Shown here: one piece after another, positions 5,195-18,050 of the stretch
Numbering within the stretch: position 1 is the first letter of the stretch
How the letters are laid out: each line of letters begins with the position of its first letter
Source: Microbacterium halophytorum
GTDB taxonomy: Bacteria; Actinomycetota; Actinomycetes; Actinomycetales; Microbacteriaceae
Length of the DNA: 64,000 nucleotides
NCBI RefSeq assembly: GCF_002970975.1
Contig: NZ_PNFA01000014.1
Span: 1 to 64,000, forward strand
Reading direction: 5' to 3'
Position numbers and translations under genes: made by a program
Notes under the pieces: generated by a model
What the model was told of the DNA's origin: nothing
The model's database searches: none
Seen by the model: only the letters and a program-made list of their open reading frames with translations

Positions 5195-5239
5195 CCTCTA
5201 AGAGTGTCGGAGCGGGTCAAGATTCATCCGACGCTACGG

Positions 5240-6140
5240 GGCAGTGTTCACGCGGCGTCGACACAGGCGTCGGCAGCCGTAGATCCGGTTGCCGGTCTGG
5301 CCTCCATGGCCGAGGGGCTCCTGCTGAACACGCTGGCGAGTCCGGTCGAGCGCGTCGCCGAACAAGGCAATGACATGGAACGGATCCATGACCGCTGTCG
5401 CACCCGGGATCTCGTCACCGGCGGCGGTCTTGTAACCGGCGAACCCGTCCATCGCGACCACGTCGACGCCATCACGCCACGTCTTCGGGCGCTGCGCGAG
5501 CCAGATCTTGAACGCGTTCTCTGACCGTGCTGGGACCATGTCGAGCAGCCGCACCGGCCCCGTCTTCTGCGGGCCGGAGTGAGGTCGATGATGACGGGCA
5601 CGTACCTGTCGCCCAGGCGCGTGTGGCGCCAGACGTGCTCATCGACACCGATCGTGGTCACCCCGTCGAACCTGACCGGATCGTCGATGAGGAGCTGCTG
5701 CCCCTCGGCGAGGATCGCGTCGTTCGCGGCATGCCAGGACGCGTCGAGCGATTCCACGACGCGAGCGACGGGAAGACGCTGGCAGACGATGGCCTCACGG
5801 GCCTACCTGATGGCGGCGCGGGTGGGCCGCCCGCGCTGCTCGGCCGCGGTCGTGGTGTCCGCGCGCCAAATGGTCCCGCACGAGGAGCACGCGAATCGGC
5901 GGACGCGAACGAGGAGAGGCGTCGGTCGCCAGCCCAGCGGCACATGCGCGAGACGGCGAGCCTGTGTCCCGCGGGCGATGCCTCGGCGCCGCACCCGCGG
6001 CAGAACGGGGCACGCTCGATGACTCGGCACTCCAGCACCGCCTTGTCAGGCGAGTTCTCCTGACCCGTCGCGGTCAGGCCGTGGTCGTCGAGGAGGCAGA
6101 ACGCAGAGAGATCAGGGTCGGCGAAGGTACCGCGGGACAC
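5240..6140 (-). pseudogene. ISL3-family transposase, frameshifted and C-terminally truncated
   Basis: Pieces of one ISL3 transposase are spread over several frames. They are an N-terminal part with the zinc-finger-like cysteines (RVIERAPFCRGCGAEA), then LAHVPLGWRPTPLLVRVRR with CSSCGTIW, then the start of the catalytic part (TIGVDEHVWRHTRLGDRYV), then DVVAMDGFAGYKTA with AVMDPFHVIALFGDALDR. At least two frameshifts separate them and the C terminus is lost at about 5240. The gene reads from the terminal repeat at 6245-6266, so this is the left copy of the two ISL3 remnants that bracket the microcin C-like cluster. Confidence 0.8.
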
Positions 6141-6244
6141 GTCGAGGTCTTTCGGATGGCGAGCGTAGGAACTTCCATCTTCGGGAAGCCTCGAGCTCGT
6201 CTCCGCGACCGCTACGCCGCCGCACCGTCAACCGACCGCAACAC

Positions 6245-6266
6245 CCTCATCCGCGAAGAGCCCCCA
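6245..6266 (-). repeat. ISL3 terminal inverted repeat (transposase start side)
   Basis: Read on the minus strand this end is GGCTCTTCGCGGATGAGGGT followed by GT. It pairs with the ISL3 end at 8986-9007 (GGCTCTTCATGAATGAGGGC followed by GT), and both resemble known ISL3-type ends. It lies 105 bp upstream of the transposase start and only about 10 bp from the stop codon of the MFS gene. Confidence 0.7.
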
Positions 6267-6274
6267 TCGCTCCG

Positions 6275-7531
6275 TCATGTCCGGCCCGGCATTGAGATCT
6301 GGGTGAGGTCTGTCTCTCGAAGCACGGCAAGCCTGGGTATAGCGCGCAACGCGCGACTCAGAAGCGTCACTGCAACTGTGACAATCGCGGCGCCAGCGGA
6401 GACCAGGAGCGCAACCAAGGCGCCGTAGTGGTCGAAGAGCACACCGGCGACCAAAGAGCCGACCGGCATCAGAATCATTCCCGGAACACCAGATGCTGCG
6501 GCGATCCTCCCCATGTAGGCAGCTGGAGTCACAGCGGCCGTGTACGCGCTGATCGCGGCGTTGAAGGACGGTAGCGGCAGCGCGGACAGCGTCAGCACCG
6601 TTGTGGTGATCCAGAAATCTTGATAACTGAAGAGAACAGCGATCTGTCCGCCCGCGAAGCCGGCGAGCGACAGAACCCCGAGCACACCCAATCGGACCTT
6701 GGTGGCAAGCAGCCCCGCGACGAAAGAGCCGAGCACCATCCCGACACCGAAGGCGCTCGCCATGACGCCGATGAGCACGGGGGACACACCTTGCGACTGA
6801 TACTCAGCGATGAGTGTCAACGGCAGCGCGACGACAGGGAGATTCGCGAGCCCCGAAACGATTGCGATCCCTCGGAGTCCGTCGTGGTGAAACACGGCGC
6901 GAAACCCGATGACCAACTGGCTGAGGAATCGCTCGTCGGCGGCAGGTGGCGATGAGTGTCGGACGCGCGGGGCGAACACCGCCGCCAGCATATTCAGCGC
7001 GGCTTGAGACGCGGGCGCGAGCGCGGGCGCCAGACCGACGAGGATCCCGCCCGCCGGCGCCCCAAGCAGGCCTGCCGCGGCCTCTCGCCCTTGACCCAGT
7101 GCCGCGGCTCGGCCGTACTGGTCCTGCGGCACGATCACCTTCAACAGCGCGTGCTCACTCGGCCCATCAACCCCCGAGGCAGCACCGGCCACGCCGGCAC
7201 CGACCAACACAAGAGCCACGGATGCATCCGGCACGTACAGCGCAATCACCACGATAGCCCAGCCGATGGCCTGCACCGCCGATGACCCGCGCAGCATTAA
7301 GGACGGGGAGTATCGGTCGACAAGGACACCCGCAAACGTCTGGGACGCGATCAGCGCGCCCGTCAGAACGGCGAGCGCAAAGCCGGCAAGTGCTGCAGAG
7401 CCACTCACAACCACGACGAGTAGTGGTAATGCTAGGTTTCCTATCGACGACGAGAGTTCGTTGGCGACCTTTGCGACGACAAGGCGTTGGAATGCCCAGT
7501 TCTTCCTCAACGGCACGCCATCAGCTGCCAT
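6275..7531 (-). CDS. MFS exporter of the microcin C-like cluster (MccC-like)
   Basis: This 418-residue protein has about 12 membrane segments and belongs to the MFS_3 / enterobactin-exporter type. It carries ELSSSIGNLALPLLVVVVSG near the N terminus and VLVDRYSP as the cytoplasmic loop 2-3 motif. ATG 7531 lies inside the end of the upstream thiF-like gene (11-bp overlap), which implies translational coupling; a longer N terminus from the same frame is Arg/Thr-rich and unlikely. In microcin C operons the MFS protein MccC exports the modified peptide and gives partial self-immunity, and the position directly after an MccB-like gene suggests the same job. The substrate is inferred from context only. 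Confidence 0.75.
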   Translation of the reverse strand: MAADGVPLRKNWAFQRLVVAKVANELSSSIGNLALPLLVVVVSGSAALAGFALAVLTGALIASQTFAGVLVDRYSPSLMLRGSSAVQAIGWAIVVIALYVPDASVALVLVGAGVAGAASGVDGPSEHALLKVIVPQDQYGRAAALGQGREAAAGLLGAPAGGILVGLAPALAPASQAALNMLAAVFAPRVRHSSPPAADERFLSQLVIGFRAVFHHDGLRGIAIVSGLANLPVVALPLTLIAEYQSQGVSPVLIGVMASAFGVGMVLGSFVAGLLATKVRLGVLGVLSLAGFAGGQIAVLFSYQDFWITTTVLTLSALPLPSFNAAISAYTAAVTPAAYMGRIAAASGVPGMILMPVGSLVAGVLFDHYGALVALLVSAGAAIVTVAVTLLSRALRAIPRLAVLRETDLTQISMPGRT

Positions 7532-8588
7532 GCGTGCAATCCTCCGGCACGTCAATTGCGTATGAGTGCGCGTAATCGTACATGTTCTGGTGCCACGCAC
7601 GACCGACCGTTCGCGGATTCAATCCTGCGAGCAATCGGATCCCTTCGTATGCCGCCAACGAACCTGCTGCGTGCACCACCGGCCCGATAGCAGCGTTGAA
7701 CGCAGGTGGATCATCGGAAATGACCTGTGATCGCCCTTCCGCCACCAGGCACTCTCGCTCCGCGCGACGCAGACACCGGTAACAACCTGTCTTTCCGGGC
7801 ACGTAAGTACAGCAGTTGATCACGGGGCCGGCGTAGCTGCAATTTATCCATGGCGTCCCGACGGCGAGCGCGGCGTCTGACACCCAGTAGGGCATGGATG
7901 GCGGTGTGTCGGCGGCACGGAAGAACAGGTCGGCGCCTCGAAGCAGCTCCGCTGCGTGCTGCGCACTATCGATCGACGTATCGATCGCCTCGATCTCACA
8001 GTCGCTGTTGACCCTGCGCAGCCGCTCCGCCGCGACGTGCACCTTTCGCGCCCCGACGTCTGCTTCGGAGAACAGGTACTGCCGATTCAGGTTCGACAGC
8101 TCGACCGAGTCGCAGTCGACCAGTCGCAACGCGCCGATTCCTGCGGCCGCAAGGTGCATGGCGATCGCGCCGCCGATACCGCCGACACCGGCGATCGTCA
8201 CACTCGCCGCCCCGAGCGCCTCCTGTGCATGCCACCGGCTCGGCTCGCGGTGCTTCGTGATCCACGCGTAAAAGTGCGCGCTCCGCGAGTATCGATCCTG
8301 CTCTTGAGGTGTCAGCGATGTGCGGGCGTCAGCATCCTCGATGTGACCGTTCTCAACGAGCGCATCGAAGAACTCATGCGCGGCAGGGGCATCGACACTC
8401 GCGAGCCGGCAGATCTGTTCGATGATCTGCTCGCGCGTGCGTCTACCGTCCAGCAGGTCATTCAGTTCAAGCAACTGCGCGTCCGGGTCCCTGATCGACT
8501 GCCCGAGGCCGTAGGTCATGGAGCCGATCACCGAATCGCCCCGCTCGAGGTGGACGATCGAGTGACCAGAGCGAATTCGTGGTCTCAT
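7521..8588 (-). CDS. MccB-like ThiF-family peptide nucleotidyltransferase
   Basis: MccB enzymes activate the C terminus of a short precursor peptide with ATP and attach a nucleotide, giving a Trojan-horse aminoacyl-tRNA synthetase inhibitor. This 355-residue protein has the MccB layout and length (E. coli MccB is 350): an N-terminal peptide-clamp/RRE-like region (residues 8-85), then RYSR, the nucleotide loop GVGGIGG (134-140), acidic D158/D160, SNLNRQYLFSEADVGARK (165-182) and YVPGKTGCYRC (262-272). The last segment is almost identical to E. coli MccB. The usual second zinc pair CxxC at the C terminus is reduced to C351-T-H353. Start ATG 8588 follows AGGAG. It lies 66 bp downstream of the precursor gene and overlaps the exporter gene. 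Confidence 0.85.
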   Translation of the reverse strand: MRPRIRSGHSIVHLERGDSVIGSMTYGLGQSIRDPDAQLLELNDLLDGRRTREQIIEQICRLASVDAPAAHEFFDALVENGHIEDADARTSLTPQEQDRYSRSAHFYAWITKHREPSRWHAQEALGAASVTIAGVGGIGGAIAMHLAAAGIGALRLVDCDSVELSNLNRQYLFSEADVGARKVHVAAERLRRVNSDCEIEAIDTSIDSAQHAAELLRGADLFFRAADTPPSMPYWVSDAALAVGTPWINCSYAGPVINCCTYVPGKTGCYRCLRRAERECLVAEGRSQVISDDPPAFNAAIGPVVHAAGSLAAYEGIRLLAGLNPRTVGRAWHQNMYDYAHSYAIDVPEDCTHGS

Positions 8589-8604
8589 TGACTTCTCCTG
8601 GTAC

Positions 8605-8644
8605 TGCGGTGCGCATGATTCTGCGTTGAGCCATGCGCACCGCA
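8605..8644 (-). terminator. Hairpin between precursor and mccB-like gene (attenuator-like)
   Basis: A perfect 13-bp stem (TGCGGTGCGCATG at 8605-8617 with its complement at 8632-8644) encloses a 14-nt loop. It lies 10 nt after the precursor stop and overlaps the start region of the mccB-like gene. There is no run of T after it. A hairpin at the same place in the E. coli microcin C operon is known to limit readthrough so that far more precursor than enzyme message is made. The same role is inferred here. Confidence 0.6.
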
Positions 8645-8654
8645 TTGGGGCCGA

Positions 8655-8720
8655 TCACTGCTGACCGACGCGGTACTGCCAGGCATCCTGCGGCGGGATG
8701 TCGACGATCTGAAGATCCAT
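8655..8720 (-). CDS. Candidate microcin C-like precursor peptide (21 aa)
   Basis: A 22-codon frame starts with ATG 8720, preceded by GAGGGGG with 8-base spacing, and ends with TGA just before the hairpin. The peptide is MDLQIVDIPPQDAWQYRVGQ plus a final Q. In microcin C systems mccA is a tiny gene directly upstream of mccB, as here. Known MccA peptides end in Asn, which is the residue that receives the nucleotide; this one ends in Gln-Gln, so the chemistry may differ. An in-frame ATG at 8753 would give 32 residues but has a poor ribosome site. No other short frame ending in Asn was found between here and the enzyme gene. Confidence 0.65.
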   Translation of the reverse strand: MDLQIVDIPPQDAWQYRVGQQ

Positions 8721-8796
8721 AGTGTTCACCCCCTCGTGATTGCTCGTCTTCATGTCACCTGTGACGAGCCGAACTCCGCCAGTGCAGAAAGACTGG

Positions 8797-8983: not shown

Positions 8984-9240
8984 GGGGCTCTTCATGAATG
9001 AGGGCGTAGGTGGAGCCTGATCCCGCCGGTCTTGAGGAGCGACCGGGCGATGTAGTTCGTGGTGTTCCGGAAGCCCAATGCAGTCCCGCGTAGGTGCTCG
9101 AGGCGGCCGTTGATGGCCTCGGTGGGACCGTTCCAGGTCTCCCGGCCGGTCGACGTAGGCCAGGACATCGACCGCGCGGCGTGCGAGTGTGCTGCCGAGC
9201 TTGCGGACCTCGACGAGCGCGGTCGGGAGCCGGTGCTGAT
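8984..9240 (-). pseudogene. ISL3-family transposase C-terminal fragment with terminal repeat
   Basis: The minus strand encodes the end of an ISL3 transposase in two frames: LGSTLARRAVDVLAYVDRPG, then after a frameshift near 9140 WNGPTEAINGRLEHLRGTAL followed by GFRNTTNYIARSLLKTGG and RPHS with a TGA at 8992-8994. The terminal repeat GGCTCTTCATGAATGAGGGC starts at 8986, inside the end of the coding part. Everything upstream of about 9240 is missing. Together with the left remnant (5240-6266), both copies point the same way and the microcin C-like cluster lies between their ends. Confidence 0.75.
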
Positions 9241-14124: not shown

Positions 14125-14246
14125 TCCCGACGTGACGACCCGCACGGGCGCGGGTGGCGCCGGACGATAGATGTATCGAACTGCGCCCGTCGGGCGTGGG
14201 GGAGTACGCCGGGCCGGGTGGCCCGTGCGCAAGTACAAGGGGAACC

Positions 14247-17200
14247 ATGAGAAAATCACTCTCGCCCGTCGCTCTGCGAGGCGCGGGTATGTTGACGGCG
14301 GGCGTGGTGCTCGCCAGCTGTGCGCTCGTAGCGGGCGCCCCCGCGTCCTATGCGGCGACGGGCAGCATCCGTGACTTGTCGGTCAAGGTCGCCAACGACG
14401 GTGGCGACCCGGCGAACCCAGCCGACGACAACACGTCGAACGGCAAGGTTGGTCTCAATGACTACGTCGAGTACGCCTGGACGTTCGCGACCACGGGAAC
14501 GGACGACCTCCTGCTGAGCCAGACCCTTCCTGAGGGCTGGAAATGGGACGAGAACCGCCTGGATCTCGTGAACACCGATCTCGAGCAGTACTCCAGCACG
14601 GCAACGGTGAGCGAAGACGGCCGCACGCTGTCGGCCACCGTCGATGTGCCGGTGGGATCCGACAGCACGATCACGCTCGACAAGATCTATGCACAGCCGA
14701 CCAGGCCCGCAGTGGGTCAGTCGTACGCGGCGGAACTCGCCGCAACGGACGAGACGGGTGTACAGACTGCCGATGCGACGTCTGTCGATGTCGTCAAGGT
14801 GGACGTGCCGGAGTTGGCAGTCCCGACGAAGAACTCAGTGACGTCGAAGACGTATGACTTCGGCTCCGGTGCTGAGCCAGCTACGAGCATCGACACGGGG
14901 TTCGACATTGTCGATGTCCTTTCGGATGAGGTTCTCACTGACGTGCGCGTTGCGGGTTCGGGCAATGAGAGGGCATCCGAACCGGCCGGCATTGATGCGG
15001 TGACGTCGATGGCTGGTCCGATCGAGGTCAAGATGAACTTGGCTTTTTTGAAGCCGGAGTTCGGTTGGACGTCACCTGATCGCGTCGCGGCGCTGGTGAC
15101 GTCGACGAGCCCGTCCGGTGCGACCGTAGAGGTCAAGGACGTCACCGTCGGCGCAAGCGGTGCGATTGTCACTCTGCTCGTGGAGAATTGGTCGGGGAAC
15201 GTTCAGAGCGACCCGCTCCACGCCGATGTGTCGCTCCTGATGCCCGACGCCGACCTCGTTCCCGGTAGCAAAGCTTCTGCCTCTTTCAGGAGTTCGGTCT
15301 CCTACGCGCCAGCGGAGGGGCAGAGGCTCGAAGAAGTCTTCTCCAACAACAACAGTGCCGGAGAGCCCGTTTTCGGTCCGAGAACGGACCAGTACGGTGT
15401 TCTGAAGACCATCTATGTGCCTAAGGACGGAACGGACGCCGACTCTTCGTCCCCCGTCCGTGCAAACGCTGAATGGACCGCCAACCCGGTCGCCGGAGAA
15501 GGTGGCGTGAAGACGGCATCGCCCGGGAGCCGAATCTGGGCATCTGTGAATGCGAACGATCTCGGGAAGGGCGAAGACGCAGCGTTCACTCTCTACGACT
15601 ACTGGAACCCTGACGAGCAGCAGATTGCTGACGCAGCAGTCGAATTCCGGAGCGATGCCGAGAACTGGAGCATCGAGTACTCGAGCGATGCCGATCGTGA
15701 AGGAGACCCTGAGAATGCGACGTGGCACTCGTCCGTCGCAGCTGCGGGTGGTCCGGCGAAGGTCAATGCAGTGCGCGGAAAGTTTGCCGGCACCGCTGAC
15801 TCAACTGGCGCCGAAGCAATGTTCGTGCCGTTTGACGTCGTGAGCGACGTGGACGGTGCTGAGGTCTTCGACTACGGCGAGGTCCGGGCTTCTGGACAAC
15901 AGGAGCGGGAATCCAAGGCCAGGGTCGTGGTTGATGACGACCATCAGGTGCGTACGGAACTGACAACGGCTGAGTCGGTGATCGGGAGCAACTCCTTCCC
16001 CGTGTCCGTGAAGGCCGTTGCGGGGGCACAACCCGGTCTGAATGAGAGTCAGGCCGAGCGTGAGATCAATGATCTGGTGATCACAACAGCGTTCGAAGCA
16101 GACAGCGGTGTTGTGGGTGTCGACGATAGCCGGTTGGATCCGTTCTGGGAGATGACGATCTCGGGCAACGCGAAGGACGGTTTCACGGCGGAATTCCGCC
16201 CGACTGTTCCGGTATACGCGGATGAGTCGGATGAGTGGCCGATGATTGAGGTTGACGCACAGACTTCACTTCTGGTGAAGGATGGCGAGCAGGTGCTCGT
16301 GACATCGCGGGCCGATGCCGCCAACGCCGCCCCTTCGGACTCGATTCTTGACACGCGGAAGGAGAAGGCGAACGTCACGACCGTTGCGCCGAAGCTCGCG
16401 GGTATTCAGAAGATTCTGACCTCCGACGCACTCGTGAGCGGTCCCGGCGCGCACGACATCACGTGGGACGTGGAGATGATCAACACTCTGGCGCAGACAC
16501 AGGGTGAGACCAACTTCCTCGATGTGCTGCCATATGAAGGTGACCCGCACGGGTCTGACTTCGCGGGTGAACTCGACCTGACCGGTATCAGCGCGTCGGG
16601 CGATGCGGCAGACCTGCAGTTCGAATACACGACGGATGCCCCGGCAGCAGTTGAGGCGGCGCCGGACGCGGCCGACTGGAAGCCGCTTCCGGCGGACGTG
16701 GCGAGCGTCGGCGAAGACGTGACGGCGCTCCGCGCGGCGACGGAGGACTTCGGCGCAGGGTTCGCTGGGACGGTGACCATCAGTGCTGAGGCCGACGGCC
16801 TTGACGCTGGTGATGAGCTCGTCAACGGCATCTCGGCCGAGACGACTTCCGAGACCGAGCTGACCTCGGAGGCACTGCCCGTCGCAGTTGCCGACTCGGC
16901 GATCCGCGGCGTGGCCTGGATCGATGACGGTGACGGTATCCGACAGAGCGGCGAGGCGATCGCCAGCGGTATCGACGTGACGCTCAAGAGCGCCGACGGG
17001 TCTGAGACCGCGACGACGAAGACCAATGCGAAGGGGCAGTACGCCTTCTCAGGTCTCTACGGCGGTGACTACACGGTCACGTTCGACGTGAACGGTGAGA
17101 CGGCTCCGCAGAAGGCCGGTTCGAACCGCGCTCTCGACTCGGATGTCGACGCCAAGGGCGTGGCTGCGGTGTCGGTCACCCCGGGCGACGAGCTGCGCCA

Positions 17201-18050
17201 CATCGACGCCGGAATCGTGAAGTCGATTGCGGTGGCGGATGTTGCTGATCAGGAGAACACGGTTGGTGACGAGGTTGAGGTTCCGGTGAAGGCGTCGTCT
17301 AACGACGGTTCGGAGCTGGAGTTCTCGGCGGAGGGTCTGCCGGAGGGTGTGTCGATTGATGCAGCCACGGGTGTGATCTCGGGTTCGCCGACGACGAAGG
17401 GTGACTACGCGGTCACGGTGTCGGTGTCGTCGAACACGATCAAGCCGGTCGAGACCACGTTCAACTGGAAGGTGAACCCGGTTCCCGCGATTGCGGTGGC
17501 GGATGTTGCTGACCAGGAGAACACGGTTGGTGACGAGGTTGAGGTTCCGGTGAAGGCGTCGTCTAACGACGGTTCGGAGCTGGAGTTCTCGGCGGAGGGT
17601 CTGCCGGAGGGTGTGTCGATTGATGCAGCCACGGGTGTGATCTCGGGTTCGCCGACGACGAAGGGTGACTACGCGGTCACGGTGTCGGTGTCGTCGAACA
17701 CGATCAAGCCGGTCGAGACCACGTTCAACTGGGTTGTCAATGAGGTGCCCAAGGTGCCCGGTGACGACACGGATGGTGACAACACCGACGGTGGTGACAC
17801 TGACGGTGGGAACACGGATGGTGGGAACACTGACGGTGGGAACACTGACGGTGGGAACATCGACGGCGGTAGTAGTCACGGTGATGACACGGGTGCTGAC
17901 GGCGGTTCCGACGGCGCCTCGGTCCACACGGGCGGCGAGCTGGCCAACACCGGTGGAGGCATCTTCGCCCTGCTCGGTGCGCTCGCTGCGGCGATCGCCG
18001 CTGGCTTCGCCGGCGTGATGGCCTTCCTGCGGCGTCGCCGCGCGGAGTAA
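14247..18050 (+). CDS. Wall-anchored multi-domain surface protein with LANTG sorting signal
   Basis: ATG 14247 follows AAGGGGAACC. The 1267-residue product has a signal peptide (MRKSLSPVALRG, a hydrophobic core, probable cleavage after SYA near residue 38) and a large extracellular region of beta-rich, DUF11/isopeptide-like character. An SdrD-B/Cna-B-like domain follows (about 886-960, IRGVAWIDDGDGIRQSGE). Then come two nearly identical Ig-like (He_PIG) repeats of 88 residues (about 993-1168) and an Asp/Asn/Gly/Thr-rich spacer (about 1173-1228). The protein ends with a sorting signal LANTG (about 1232), a membrane segment and the basic tail RRRRAE. It is likely attached to peptidoglycan by a sortase, perhaps the one at 10648. 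Its ligand is unknown. Confidence 0.85.
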   Translation: MRKSLSPVALRGAGMLTAGVVLASCALVAGAPASYAATGSIRDLSVKVANDGGDPANPADDNTSNGKVGLNDYVEYAWTFATTGTDDLLLSQTLPEGWKWDENRLDLVNTDLEQYSSTATVSEDGRTLSATVDVPVGSDSTITLDKIYAQPTRPAVGQSYAAELAATDETGVQTADATSVDVVKVDVPELAVPTKNSVTSKTYDFGSGAEPATSIDTGFDIVDVLSDEVLTDVRVAGSGNERASEPAGIDAVTSMAGPIEVKMNLAFLKPEFGWTSPDRVAALVTSTSPSGATVEVKDVTVGASGAIVTLLVENWSGNVQSDPLHADVSLLMPDADLVPGSKASASFRSSVSYAPAEGQRLEEVFSNNNSAGEPVFGPRTDQYGVLKTIYVPKDGTDADSSSPVRANAEWTANPVAGEGGVKTASPGSRIWASVNANDLGKGEDAAFTLYDYWNPDEQQIADAAVEFRSDAENWSIEYSSDADREGDPENATWHSSVAAAGGPAKVNAVRGKFAGTADSTGAEAMFVPFDVVSDVDGAEVFDYGEVRASGQQERESKARVVVDDDHQVRTELTTAESVIGSNSFPVSVKAVAGAQPGLNESQAEREINDLVITTAFEADSGVVGVDDSRLDPFWEMTISGNAKDGFTAEFRPTVPVYADESDEWPMIEVDAQTSLLVKDGEQVLVTSRADAANAAPSDSILDTRKEKANVTTVAPKLAGIQKILTSDALVSGPGAHDITWDVEMINTLAQTQGETNFLDVLPYEGDPHGSDFAGELDLTGISASGDAADLQFEYTTDAPAAVEAAPDAADWKPLPADVASVGEDVTALRAATEDFGAGFAGTVTISAEADGLDAGDELVNGISAETTSETELTSEALPVAVADSAIRGVAWIDDGDGIRQSGEAIASGIDVTLKSADGSETATTKTNAKGQYAFSGLYGGDYTVTFDVNGETAPQKAGSNRALDSDVDAKGVAAVSVTPGDELRHIDAGIVKSIAVADVADQENTVGDEVEVPVKASSNDGSELEFSAEGLPEGVSIDAATGVISGSPTTKGDYAVTVSVSSNTIKPVETTFNWKVNPVPAIAVADVADQENTVGDEVEVPVKASSNDGSELEFSAEGLPEGVSIDAATGVISGSPTTKGDYAVTVSVSSNTIKPVETTFNWVVNEVPKVPGDDTDGDNTDGGDTDGGNTDGGNTDGGNTDGGNIDGGSSHGDDTGADGGSDGASVHTGGELANTGGGIFALLGALAAAIAAGFAGVMAFLRRRRAE
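17225..17732 (+). repeat. Tandem 264-bp repeat within the surface-protein gene
   Basis: Positions 17225-17468 and 17489-17732 are identical over almost 244 bp, with a period of 264 bp (88 codons). They encode the two Ig-like domains. Near-identity at DNA level shows a recent duplication or ongoing gene conversion, and the number of copies may vary between strains. Confidence 0.9.

What the first reader, a model, noticed from the sequence alone, without database searches (positions are those of the whole stretch)
6275..8720. A microcin C-like peptide-nucleotide cluster in an actinobacterium
Seen: a 21-codon frame with a good ribosome site, a hairpin, an MccB-type ThiF protein of near-canonical length and an MFS gene overlapping it, all on one strand. 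The ThiF protein has RYSR, GVGGIGG, NRQYLFSEADVGARK and YVPGKTGCYRC; the last segment is nearly identical to E. coli MccB. Known: mccA-mccB-mccC is the minimal set for making and exporting microcin C, a Trojan-horse aspartyl-tRNA synthetase inhibitor. Inferred: this cluster makes a related nucleotide-modified peptide. No MccE/MccF-type immunity gene is seen, so protection may rest on export or lie elsewhere.
Basis: partly seen in the sequence, partly recalled or inferred. Interest (0 to 1): 0.9.

Follow-up and report, generated by a model that had tools for sequence, protein, structure and literature searches.

The report
Orphan three-gene peptide-modifying cluster
An actinobacterium carries a compact three-gene set that probably makes, chemically modifies and exports a small peptide; it is laid out like the microcin C antibiotic genes, but the peptide lacks the end residue that microcin C chemistry needs, so the product is probably something else and still unknown.

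Summary
In detail: on the minus strand lie a 21-codon ORF, a 14-bp hairpin, a 355-aa ThiF protein and an MFS gene overlapping it by 11 nt. The ORF has the best Shine-Dalgarno match of 3,819 ATG/GTG codons in the window. The ThiF model matches MccB over its full length (Z 33; PaaA 28): a RiPP-type enzyme with a leader-binding domain, not housekeeping ThiF/MoeB. The microcin C reading is not supported. The peptide ends in Gln, while terminal Asn is described as strictly conserved in MccA peptides (PMC9239234, passages). In three trees the enzyme lies outside the MccB clade, although an AU test does not exclude joining it (p 0.101). Its nearest relatives are actinobacterial enzymes at up to 41% identity, many beside a precursor with an ETT leader or an M50-like protease gene; the window has neither. 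No close relative was found. Best reading: a lone variant of the ThiF/RRE RiPP operon that activates the 21-mer's C-terminus, more likely closing it on itself than attaching a nucleotide, and exports the product. The chemistry is unproven.

The parts
8726..8734 (-). Shine-Dalgarno sequence AGGGGGTGA, 5 nt before the ATG of the 21-codon ORF
   Evidence: duplex energy -16.6 kcal/mol, best of 3,819 ATG/GTG in the window
8655..8720 (-). 21-codon ORF, probable RiPP precursor MDLQIVDIPPQDAWQYRVGQQ
   Evidence: ribosome site; place relative to thiF as for precursor ORFs of relatives; no significant sequence similarity to them
8605..8644 (-). 14-bp hairpin between precursor ORF and thiF, candidate partial terminator or RNA-stabilising stem
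   Evidence: of 26 related loci with spacers of 30 nt or more, 21 hold a stem of at least 12 bp (control 90 of 999)
7521..8588 (-). RRE-ThiF adenylyltransferase, 355 aa (leader-binding domain about residues 1-90, adenylation domain about 90-355)
   Evidence: AlphaFold model pLDDT 93.7; full-length match to MccB Z 33.1 and PaaA Z 28.4, MoeB/ThiF only from residue 90 on; Pfam PaaA-like_N only E 0.036, below cut-off
6275..7531 (-). MFS transporter, 418 aa, probable exporter
   Evidence: weakly related to MFS proteins of other ThiF-MFS sets, best E 1.2e-8
8984..9007 (.). ISL3-type end, inverted with 6241-6264 (83%)
   Evidence: ISL3 transposase 3' piece 8995-9168 beside it
6241..6264 (.). ISL3-type end on the other side of the cluster
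   Evidence: ISL3 transposase piece 5237-5554

Best explanation
A minimal RiPP operon. The 21-residue peptide is made in excess (very strong ribosome site; hairpin that may hold back thiF). Its N-terminal part is held by the RRE domain of the ThiF enzyme, which adenylates the peptide's C-terminal carboxylate (Gln21) with ATP. The activated end is then captured by a nucleophile within the peptide (Trp14, Tyr16 or an amide), giving a C-terminally closed peptide that the MFS protein exports. Shown: the genes, the ribosome site, the hairpin, the MccB/PaaA-type fold (predicted) and conserved R169/K182/D227. Inferred: that this ORF is the substrate, that its C-terminus is activated, that closure is intramolecular, and export. 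My split: RiPP operon 0.85; C-terminal activation given that 0.85; given both, intramolecular closure 0.5, nucleotide conjugate 0.2, another capture 0.3. The confidence below is for the whole chain with closure; it is 0.72 for operon plus C-terminal activation.
For: Best ribosome site of 3,819. The layout precursor-hairpin-thiF is found in E. coli and H. pylori mcc, used as positive controls (MRTGNAN and MKLSYRN recovered; stems 13 and 10 bp), and in other ThiF loci (21 of 26 stems at least 12 bp). Two-domain MccB/PaaA fold; PaaA aligned from residue 2 through the N-terminal domain. R169, K182 and D227 are invariant; R169 and K182 align with PaaA R174 and K187, whose mutants are impaired or dead (PMC12250964); the match to EnfB R167/K180/D225 rests on equal spacing only. 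GrcB, EnfB and IndF adenylate a carboxylate and close the peptide on itself (PMC12250964, PMC12150305). The 21-mer has no Cys and no Glu, which speaks against GrcB-type thiolactone and pantocin-type Glu-Glu chemistry.
Against: The peptide does not carry the relatives' leader motif: score -3.1 against 14.3-29.6 for 17 members left out in turn; 225 of 1,474 background ORFs do as well. An N-terminal strand pattern is only weak (16 of 935 window ORFs as good, itself included), and best-of-35 similarity is reached by 22.6% of shuffles. No protease gene lies in the cluster; a relative's M50-like protease found nothing in the own genome (an empty answer without positive control). The enzyme lacks the nearly invariant last zinc Cys. 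No close relative was found, so conservation cannot vouch for the ORF. The cluster lies between broken ISL3 pieces. Which nucleophile attacks is a guess.
Confidence: 0.38

Rival explanations
1. True microcin C type: the enzyme attaches a nucleotide to the peptide's end through an N-P bond, giving a Trojan-horse antibiotic, with Gln standing in for Asn.
For: Same gene order and a hairpin as in mcc; best structural match MccB, Z 33.1 over 324 residues; YVPGKTGCYRC nearly identical to MccB; AU test does not reject window plus MccB, p 0.101.
Against: C-terminal Gln, whereas MccA peptides are reported to end in Asn (PMC9239234, PMC6495379, passages); the MccB clade (E. coli, H. pylori, L022, L023; 100/98) excludes the window, as do the MccB groups; MFS not similar to the H. 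pylori cluster's MFS (E 3.7; E. coli MccC not compared).
Confidence: 0.15
2. Divergent member of the actinobacterial ThiF RiPPs with ETT leader and M50-like protease, which lost these and took an MFS exporter; chemistry as in that group, itself unknown. This overlaps with the best explanation.
For: Highest identities are to that group (L004, L006, L010, L011, L037; 36-41%); inside a 51-row clade with SH-aLRT 96; place of precursor and hairpin as there.
Against: No ETT leader, MFS in place of the protease, nothing from the own genome; in the careful tree the window's branch is deep and unresolved.
Confidence: 0.25
3. The 21-codon ORF is a regulatory leader peptide (attenuator) for a resistance-type MFS gene, and ThiF acts on another substrate.
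For: Short ORF plus hairpin upstream of a drug-exporter-like MFS (TIGR00900 98 bits, below its cut-off of 320).
Against: In E. coli mcc the same layout carries the proven precursor (PMC6495379, passages); thiF stands between ORF and MFS; the thiF ribosome site AGGAG lies outside the 14-bp stem, though outer pairs of the predicted fold touch it.
Confidence: 0.08
4. Decayed, non-functional remnant on an IS-littered island.
For: Flanking ISL3 pieces are broken; no match in the other 148 genomes sampled from the genus.
Against: All three frames intact, strong ribosome site, catalytic residues kept.
Confidence: 0.08

Closest known systems
Microcin C minimal operon mccABC (E. coli, H. pylori)
   Same: short precursor ORF with strong ribosome site, hairpin, RRE-ThiF enzyme of MccB fold, MFS gene
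   Different: ORF of 21 codons ending in Gln, not (usually 7 codons) ending in Asn; enzyme outside the MccB clade in three trees; no MccD/E/F seen
Pantocin A enzyme PaaA
   Same: two-domain RRE-ThiF architecture; PDB 5ff5 aligned from residue 2 on, Z 28.4
   Different: no Glu in the 21-mer; MFS beside thiF, and no PaaB-type oxygenase or EamA gene among the neighbouring ORFs scanned
EnfB (enterofaecin), IndF (indolylamide), GrcB (thiolactone)
   Same: RRE-ThiF enzymes acting on short precursors by carboxylate adenylation (PMC12250964, PMC12150305)
   Different: no WIVI or NWYFI motif and no Cys in the 21-mer; Bacillota hosts; enzymes not compared by sequence here
Actinobacterial ThiF clusters with ETT leader and M50-like gene (unnamed; L004, L010, L037, L040 and others)
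   Same: closest enzymes; precursor, hairpin and thiF in the same order
   Different: window has no ETT leader, and MFS instead of the M50-like gene
ThiF-MFS sets L119, L123, L124, L088, L115
   Same: 17-20 aa precursor ORF, RRE-ThiF, MFS
   Different: ORFs end in Gly or Ser; their MFS proteins are related among themselves but only weakly to the window's

Membership tests
Microcin C (MccABC) | RRE-ThiF nucleotidyltransferase of MccB fold | tested here: met
   predicted model: Z 33.1, 324 residues aligned, rmsd 2.9
Microcin C (MccABC) | precursor with C-terminal Asn | tested here: not met
   ends in Gln; Asn described as strictly conserved (PMC9239234; PMC6495379)
Microcin C (MccABC) | enzyme within the MccB clade | tested here: inconclusive
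   outside in trees; AU p 0.101 does not reject inclusion
Microcin C (MccABC) | MFS exporter next to mccB | tested here: met
   MFS_1 E 5.5e-19; presence only, no useful similarity to the H. pylori cluster's MFS
Microcin C (MccABC) | transcription terminator between mccA and mccB | tested here: inconclusive
   14-bp hairpin but no U-tract terminator called
Microcin C (MccABC) | peptide-nucleotide product with N-P bond | not testable with these tools
   needs enzyme assay and mass spectrometry
Pantocin A (PaaPABC) | Glu-Glu core in the precursor | tested here: not met
   no Glu in the 21-mer
Pantocin A (PaaPABC) | PaaB oxygenase and PaaC EamA exporter beside the enzyme | tested here: not met
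   neighbour is MFS; nine flanking ORFs scanned gave ISL3 pieces, a helix-turn-helix or nothing
Actinobacterial ETT-leader ThiF RiPPs | leader motif I-x-I-R-x-L-D/E-K-x-E-T-T | tested here: not met
   score -3.1 against 14.3-29.6 in 17 members left out in turn
Actinobacterial ETT-leader ThiF RiPPs | M50-like protease gene after thiF (in 32 of 80 loci only) | tested here: not met
   MFS stands there
Housekeeping ThiF/MoeB | adenylation domain alone; equivalog scores | tested here: not met
   extra N-terminal domain; ThiF and MoeB equivalog scores below cut-off, e.g. 121 against 275 bits; two own-genome paralogues split off at 100/100
EnfB/IndF/GrcB types | their core motifs (WIVI, NWYFI, C-terminal Cys) | tested here: not met
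   absent from the 21-mer; motifs from PMC12250964 and PMC12150305

The most novel reading that the evidence does not exclude
A glutamine version of microcin C: the C-terminal Gln is adenylated, closes to a glutarimide, and the imide nitrogen takes a nucleotide from a second ATP, so that after uptake and trimming a non-hydrolysable glutamyl-adenylate mimic inhibits glutamyl-tRNA synthetase instead of aspartyl-tRNA synthetase. The evidence neither shows nor excludes it.
Probability: 0.06. Interest if true: 0.88.

Novelty: new variant of a known kind. Interest (0 to 1): 0.5.

Why it matters
ThiF/RRE enzymes are a growing class of peptide-closing and peptide-capping catalysts with only a few chemistries known. 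This cluster is about as small as such a pathway can be (three genes, 21-residue peptide), and its peptide fits none of the known substrate motifs compared here, so one in vitro assay would show either a new closure chemistry or a Gln-based analogue of microcin C. The survey around it also shows a broad actinobacterial set of ThiF RiPPs with a shared ETT leader, which I did not see described in the papers searched (listings, with five of the papers read in part). The network of 27,400 RRE-ThiF candidates in PMC12150305 may well contain these enzymes without describing them.

Tried and rejected
A first impression that the 21-mer shares the relatives' leader (LQIVDIPPQD beside LQIRKLEKVE) was tested and dropped: score -3.1; 12 of 106 window ORFs with a Shine-Dalgarno (itself included) and 225 of 1,474 ORFs of other loci do as well; best-of-35 similarity is reached by 22.6% of shuffles. 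An N-terminal strand pattern, chosen after seeing the peptide, gave a weak signal: 16 of 935 window ORFs, itself included, and 166 of 9,636 ORFs of other loci do as well.

My early reading that no relative's precursor ends in Asn (note) was wrong: 15 of 34 motif-bearing peptides, in 32 of 80 loci, do. Seven of these 15 loci were put in a tree and fall in one 12-row clade away from the window, with neighbours whose peptides end in Ser or Ala.

A single-protein scan of 84,980 species found no close relative. 'M50-like' rests on HExxH, Pfam M50 matches below cut-off and one record's annotation (L007); that these proteins begin with an RRE-like domain is an impression by eye, not tested. In the hairpin survey 34 loci were measured, not every locus with a precursor candidate; near-copies (L010, L037, L039) count separately, and five spacers are over 100 nt, longer than the 75-nt controls. 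PADLOC matches were to E1 domains. Rfam found nothing at its cut-offs. NCBIfam had no model for six relatives' precursors or the 21-mer. PaaA in the tree is a 203-residue fragment; E. coli MccC, EnfB, IndF and GrcB were not compared by sequence.
Full report
What is there. On the minus strand the window holds a 21-codon ORF (8655-8720, MDLQIVDIPPQDAWQYRVGQQ), a 66-nt spacer with a 14-bp hairpin (8605-8644), a ThiF-family gene (7521-8588, 355 aa) and an MFS gene (6275-7531, 418 aa) overlapping it by 11 nt. The ORF's ribosome site AGGGGGTGA, 5 nt before the ATG, has the best predicted pairing with the 16S tail of all 3,819 ATG/GTG codons of the window, and of its 935 ORFs of 15-45 codons. The hairpin by itself could be chance: 66 of 1,938 window tiles hold a stem of 14 or more, and 274 of 1,938 fold as stably.

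Layout compared. I measured the spacer between precursor ORF and thiF in 34 related loci. In 26 it is 30 nt or longer, and 21 of these 26 hold an uninterrupted stem of at least 12 bp, against 90 of 999 random 75-nt stretches of the same loci; the 26 include near-copies and five spacers over 100 nt. Eight have spacers of 11-21 nt and no room for it. The positive controls E. coli (MRTGNAN, stem 13 bp) and H. pylori (MKLSYRN, stem 10 bp) microcin C were recovered by the same kind of search; a terminator between mccA and mccB is described for E. coli (PMC6495379, passages). The window fits this layout, and this with the ribosome site is the reason to take the ORF for a precursor.

The enzyme. Sequence search of solved structures gives MccB (E 1.8e-27, residues 95-319), PaaA (5.2e-23, residues 2-204, so including the N-terminal domain) and ThiF. 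The AlphaFold model from 42 sequences has mean pLDDT 93.7. It matches MccB over the whole length (Z 33.1, 324 residues, rmsd 2.9), PaaA with Z 28.4 (312 residues, rmsd 4.5), and MoeB and ThiF (Z about 29) only from residue 90 on. That makes it an RRE-ThiF enzyme of the RiPP kind, although no Pfam RRE-type model passes its cut-off (PaaA-like_N E 0.036). NCBIfam equivalogs for ThiF and MoeB score below their cut-offs. R169, K182 and D227 are invariant; R169 and K182 align with R174 and K187 of PaaA, whose mutants are impaired or dead (PMC12250964, parts 1-5 of 8 read). One oddity: the nearly invariant last zinc cysteine is missing (the protein ends EDCTHGS).

Relatives. A single-sequence scan of 84,980 species found none; an alignment scan kept the best 80 of 587 or more, at 30-40% identity. 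The best identity seen is 41% over 277 residues (L006). Among the nearest enzymes, L004, L010, L037 and L040 stand between a precursor ORF with the leader I-x-I-R/K-x-L-E-K-x-E-T-T (first position I, L or V) and a membrane protein with HExxH; L011 has the latter, but I found no precursor. The membrane proteins match Pfam M50 only below cut-off (E 0.00077 and 0.0082). The relative found in the same order, L129, has a 25-codon ORF (ribosome site -20.3), thiF, and a similar downstream gene. Of the 80 loci, 32 have a motif-bearing ORF near thiF, 32 a downstream HExxH protein, 12 both.

The peptide is not recognisably one of theirs. With a profile of 17 relatives' leaders the window peptide scores -3.1, members left out in turn 14.3-29.6, and many random ORFs do as well. 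On an N-terminal strand pattern, chosen after seeing the peptide, 16 of 935 window ORFs, itself included, do as well. Best-of-35 similarity is reached by 22.6% of shuffles. So the precursor assignment rests on ribosome site, position and hairpin, not on homology.

Microcin C or not. The literature calls the C-terminal Asn strictly conserved in MccA peptides (PMC9239234, passages; PMC6495379, passages); the reaction runs through a succinimide formed at that Asn (PMC12250964). The window peptide ends in Gln-Gln. In the 70-row quick tree the window lies in a 51-row, mainly actinobacterial clade without the MccBs (SH-aLRT 96). In the 42-row careful tree the MccBs (E. coli, H. pylori, and L022 and L023 from genomes of the window's class) form a clade at 100/98 that excludes it, with the window's own branch deep and unresolved. 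A third, 54-row tree also keeps them apart. Against my reading: forcing the window into the MccB clade costs 16 log units but is not rejected (AU p 0.101), and long branches are present. The MFS protein shows no useful similarity to the H. pylori one and is only weakly related (best E 1.2e-8, L115) to MFS proteins of other ThiF-MFS sets, which are related among themselves. Those sets (L119 Macrococcus, L123 Pantoea, L124 Salmonella, L088 and L115 actinobacteria) have 17-20 aa precursor ORFs ending in Gly or Ser, so precursor-ThiF-MFS is not a microcin C signature. Actinobacterial microcin C clusters are in any case known, in Nocardia vaccinii and Mycobacteroides abscessus (PMC9239234, passages).

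Mechanism. Known ThiF RiPP enzymes share carboxylate adenylation and differ in what attacks: the Asn amide, then a second ATP (MccB); an internal thiol (GrcB); a backbone amide (EnfB); a Trp indole (IndF) (PMC12250964; PMC12150305, two of three parts read). The window peptide has no Cys and no Glu, but has Trp14, Tyr16 and Gln20-Gln21. I therefore favour activation of the Gln21 carboxylate and closure onto a nucleophile in the peptide, then MFS export, and give a nucleotide conjugate about 0.2 within that frame. The boldest version of the latter, a glutarimide route to a glutamyl-adenylate mimic, I put at 0.06. Nothing here measures chemistry.

Setting. The cluster lies between two inverted 24-nt ends (6241-6264 and 8984-9007, 83% complementary) that adjoin ISL3 transposase pieces (5237-5554 and 8995-9168). 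With no match in the other 148 genomes sampled from the genus this suggests arrival by transfer. I saw no immunity-type gene among the nine neighbouring ORFs scanned; minimal three-gene mcc operons lack one too (PMC9239234, passages).

Verdict. Observation confirmed; microcin C membership not met on its key feature; a lone variant of the ThiF/RRE RiPP operon. Statements that something was not found described cover only the searches, mostly seen as listings.

Noticed in passing
window 6241-6264 and 8984-9007, with 5237-5554 and 8995-9168: The cluster sits between two inverted ISL3-type ends and broken ISL3 transposase pieces, like cargo between two IS copies.
   Followed up: partly
L041, L042, L043, L049, L051, L055, L062, L071, L079, L082, L087, L101, L106, L110, L114: ThiF clusters of Streptosporangiaceae whose ETT-leader (some ETA) precursors end in Asn (15 of 34 motif peptides), e.g. 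..ETTVCSNSTGN; the seven put in a tree lie in one clade outside MccB. One checked, L110, has a DUF6879 gene after thiF. Possible peptide-nucleotide RiPPs with a removable leader; the cut site is a guess.
   Followed up: partly
HIT hydrolases are known microcin C immunity factors (PMC7157772, passages). No ORF ending in Asn was found within 500 nt upstream.
   Followed up: partly
L119, L123, L124, L088, L115: ThiF-MFS sets in Bacillota, Enterobacterales and actinobacteria with 17-20 aa precursor ORFs (MSLKMETIKNKAALLGGVPG, MKFTKFNASNATLAAVG, MKFTKHATSNAKLALVG, MRIRKHSVSVSDIALPS, MSVAMTTRKASIAGQANEG) and mutually related MFS proteins.
   Followed up: partly
L052 upstream of thiF: Three tandem precursor ORFs with different cores (GVCQDCNYA, QGCPTHGSG, QACPANNPGCGAG) before one ThiF gene.
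   Followed up: no
L064 (Bacillus sp. SA1-12), 159-78 nt upstream of thiF: Precursor-like ORF ending in AAGCCCCCGCC with a very strong ribosome site, -21.5 kcal/mol, and a downstream HExxH gene.
   Followed up: no
L076, L078, L084, L086, L093, L098, L107, L109: Pseudonocardiaceae ThiF genes preceded by a 19-24 aa ORF, often of the type MIEFIEV..., ending 12-21 nt before thiF or (L109) overlapping it, with no room for a hairpin.
   Followed up: partly
window 7524-7544: The ThiF protein lacks the nearly invariant last zinc cysteine, ending EDCTHGS, where a CxH ligand pair is conceivable.
   Followed up: no
window 14154-18050, + strand: 1,298-aa surface-type protein with a long repeated stretch (IAVADVADQENT...) and an anchor-like C-terminus LANTGGG...RRRRAE.
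   Followed up: no
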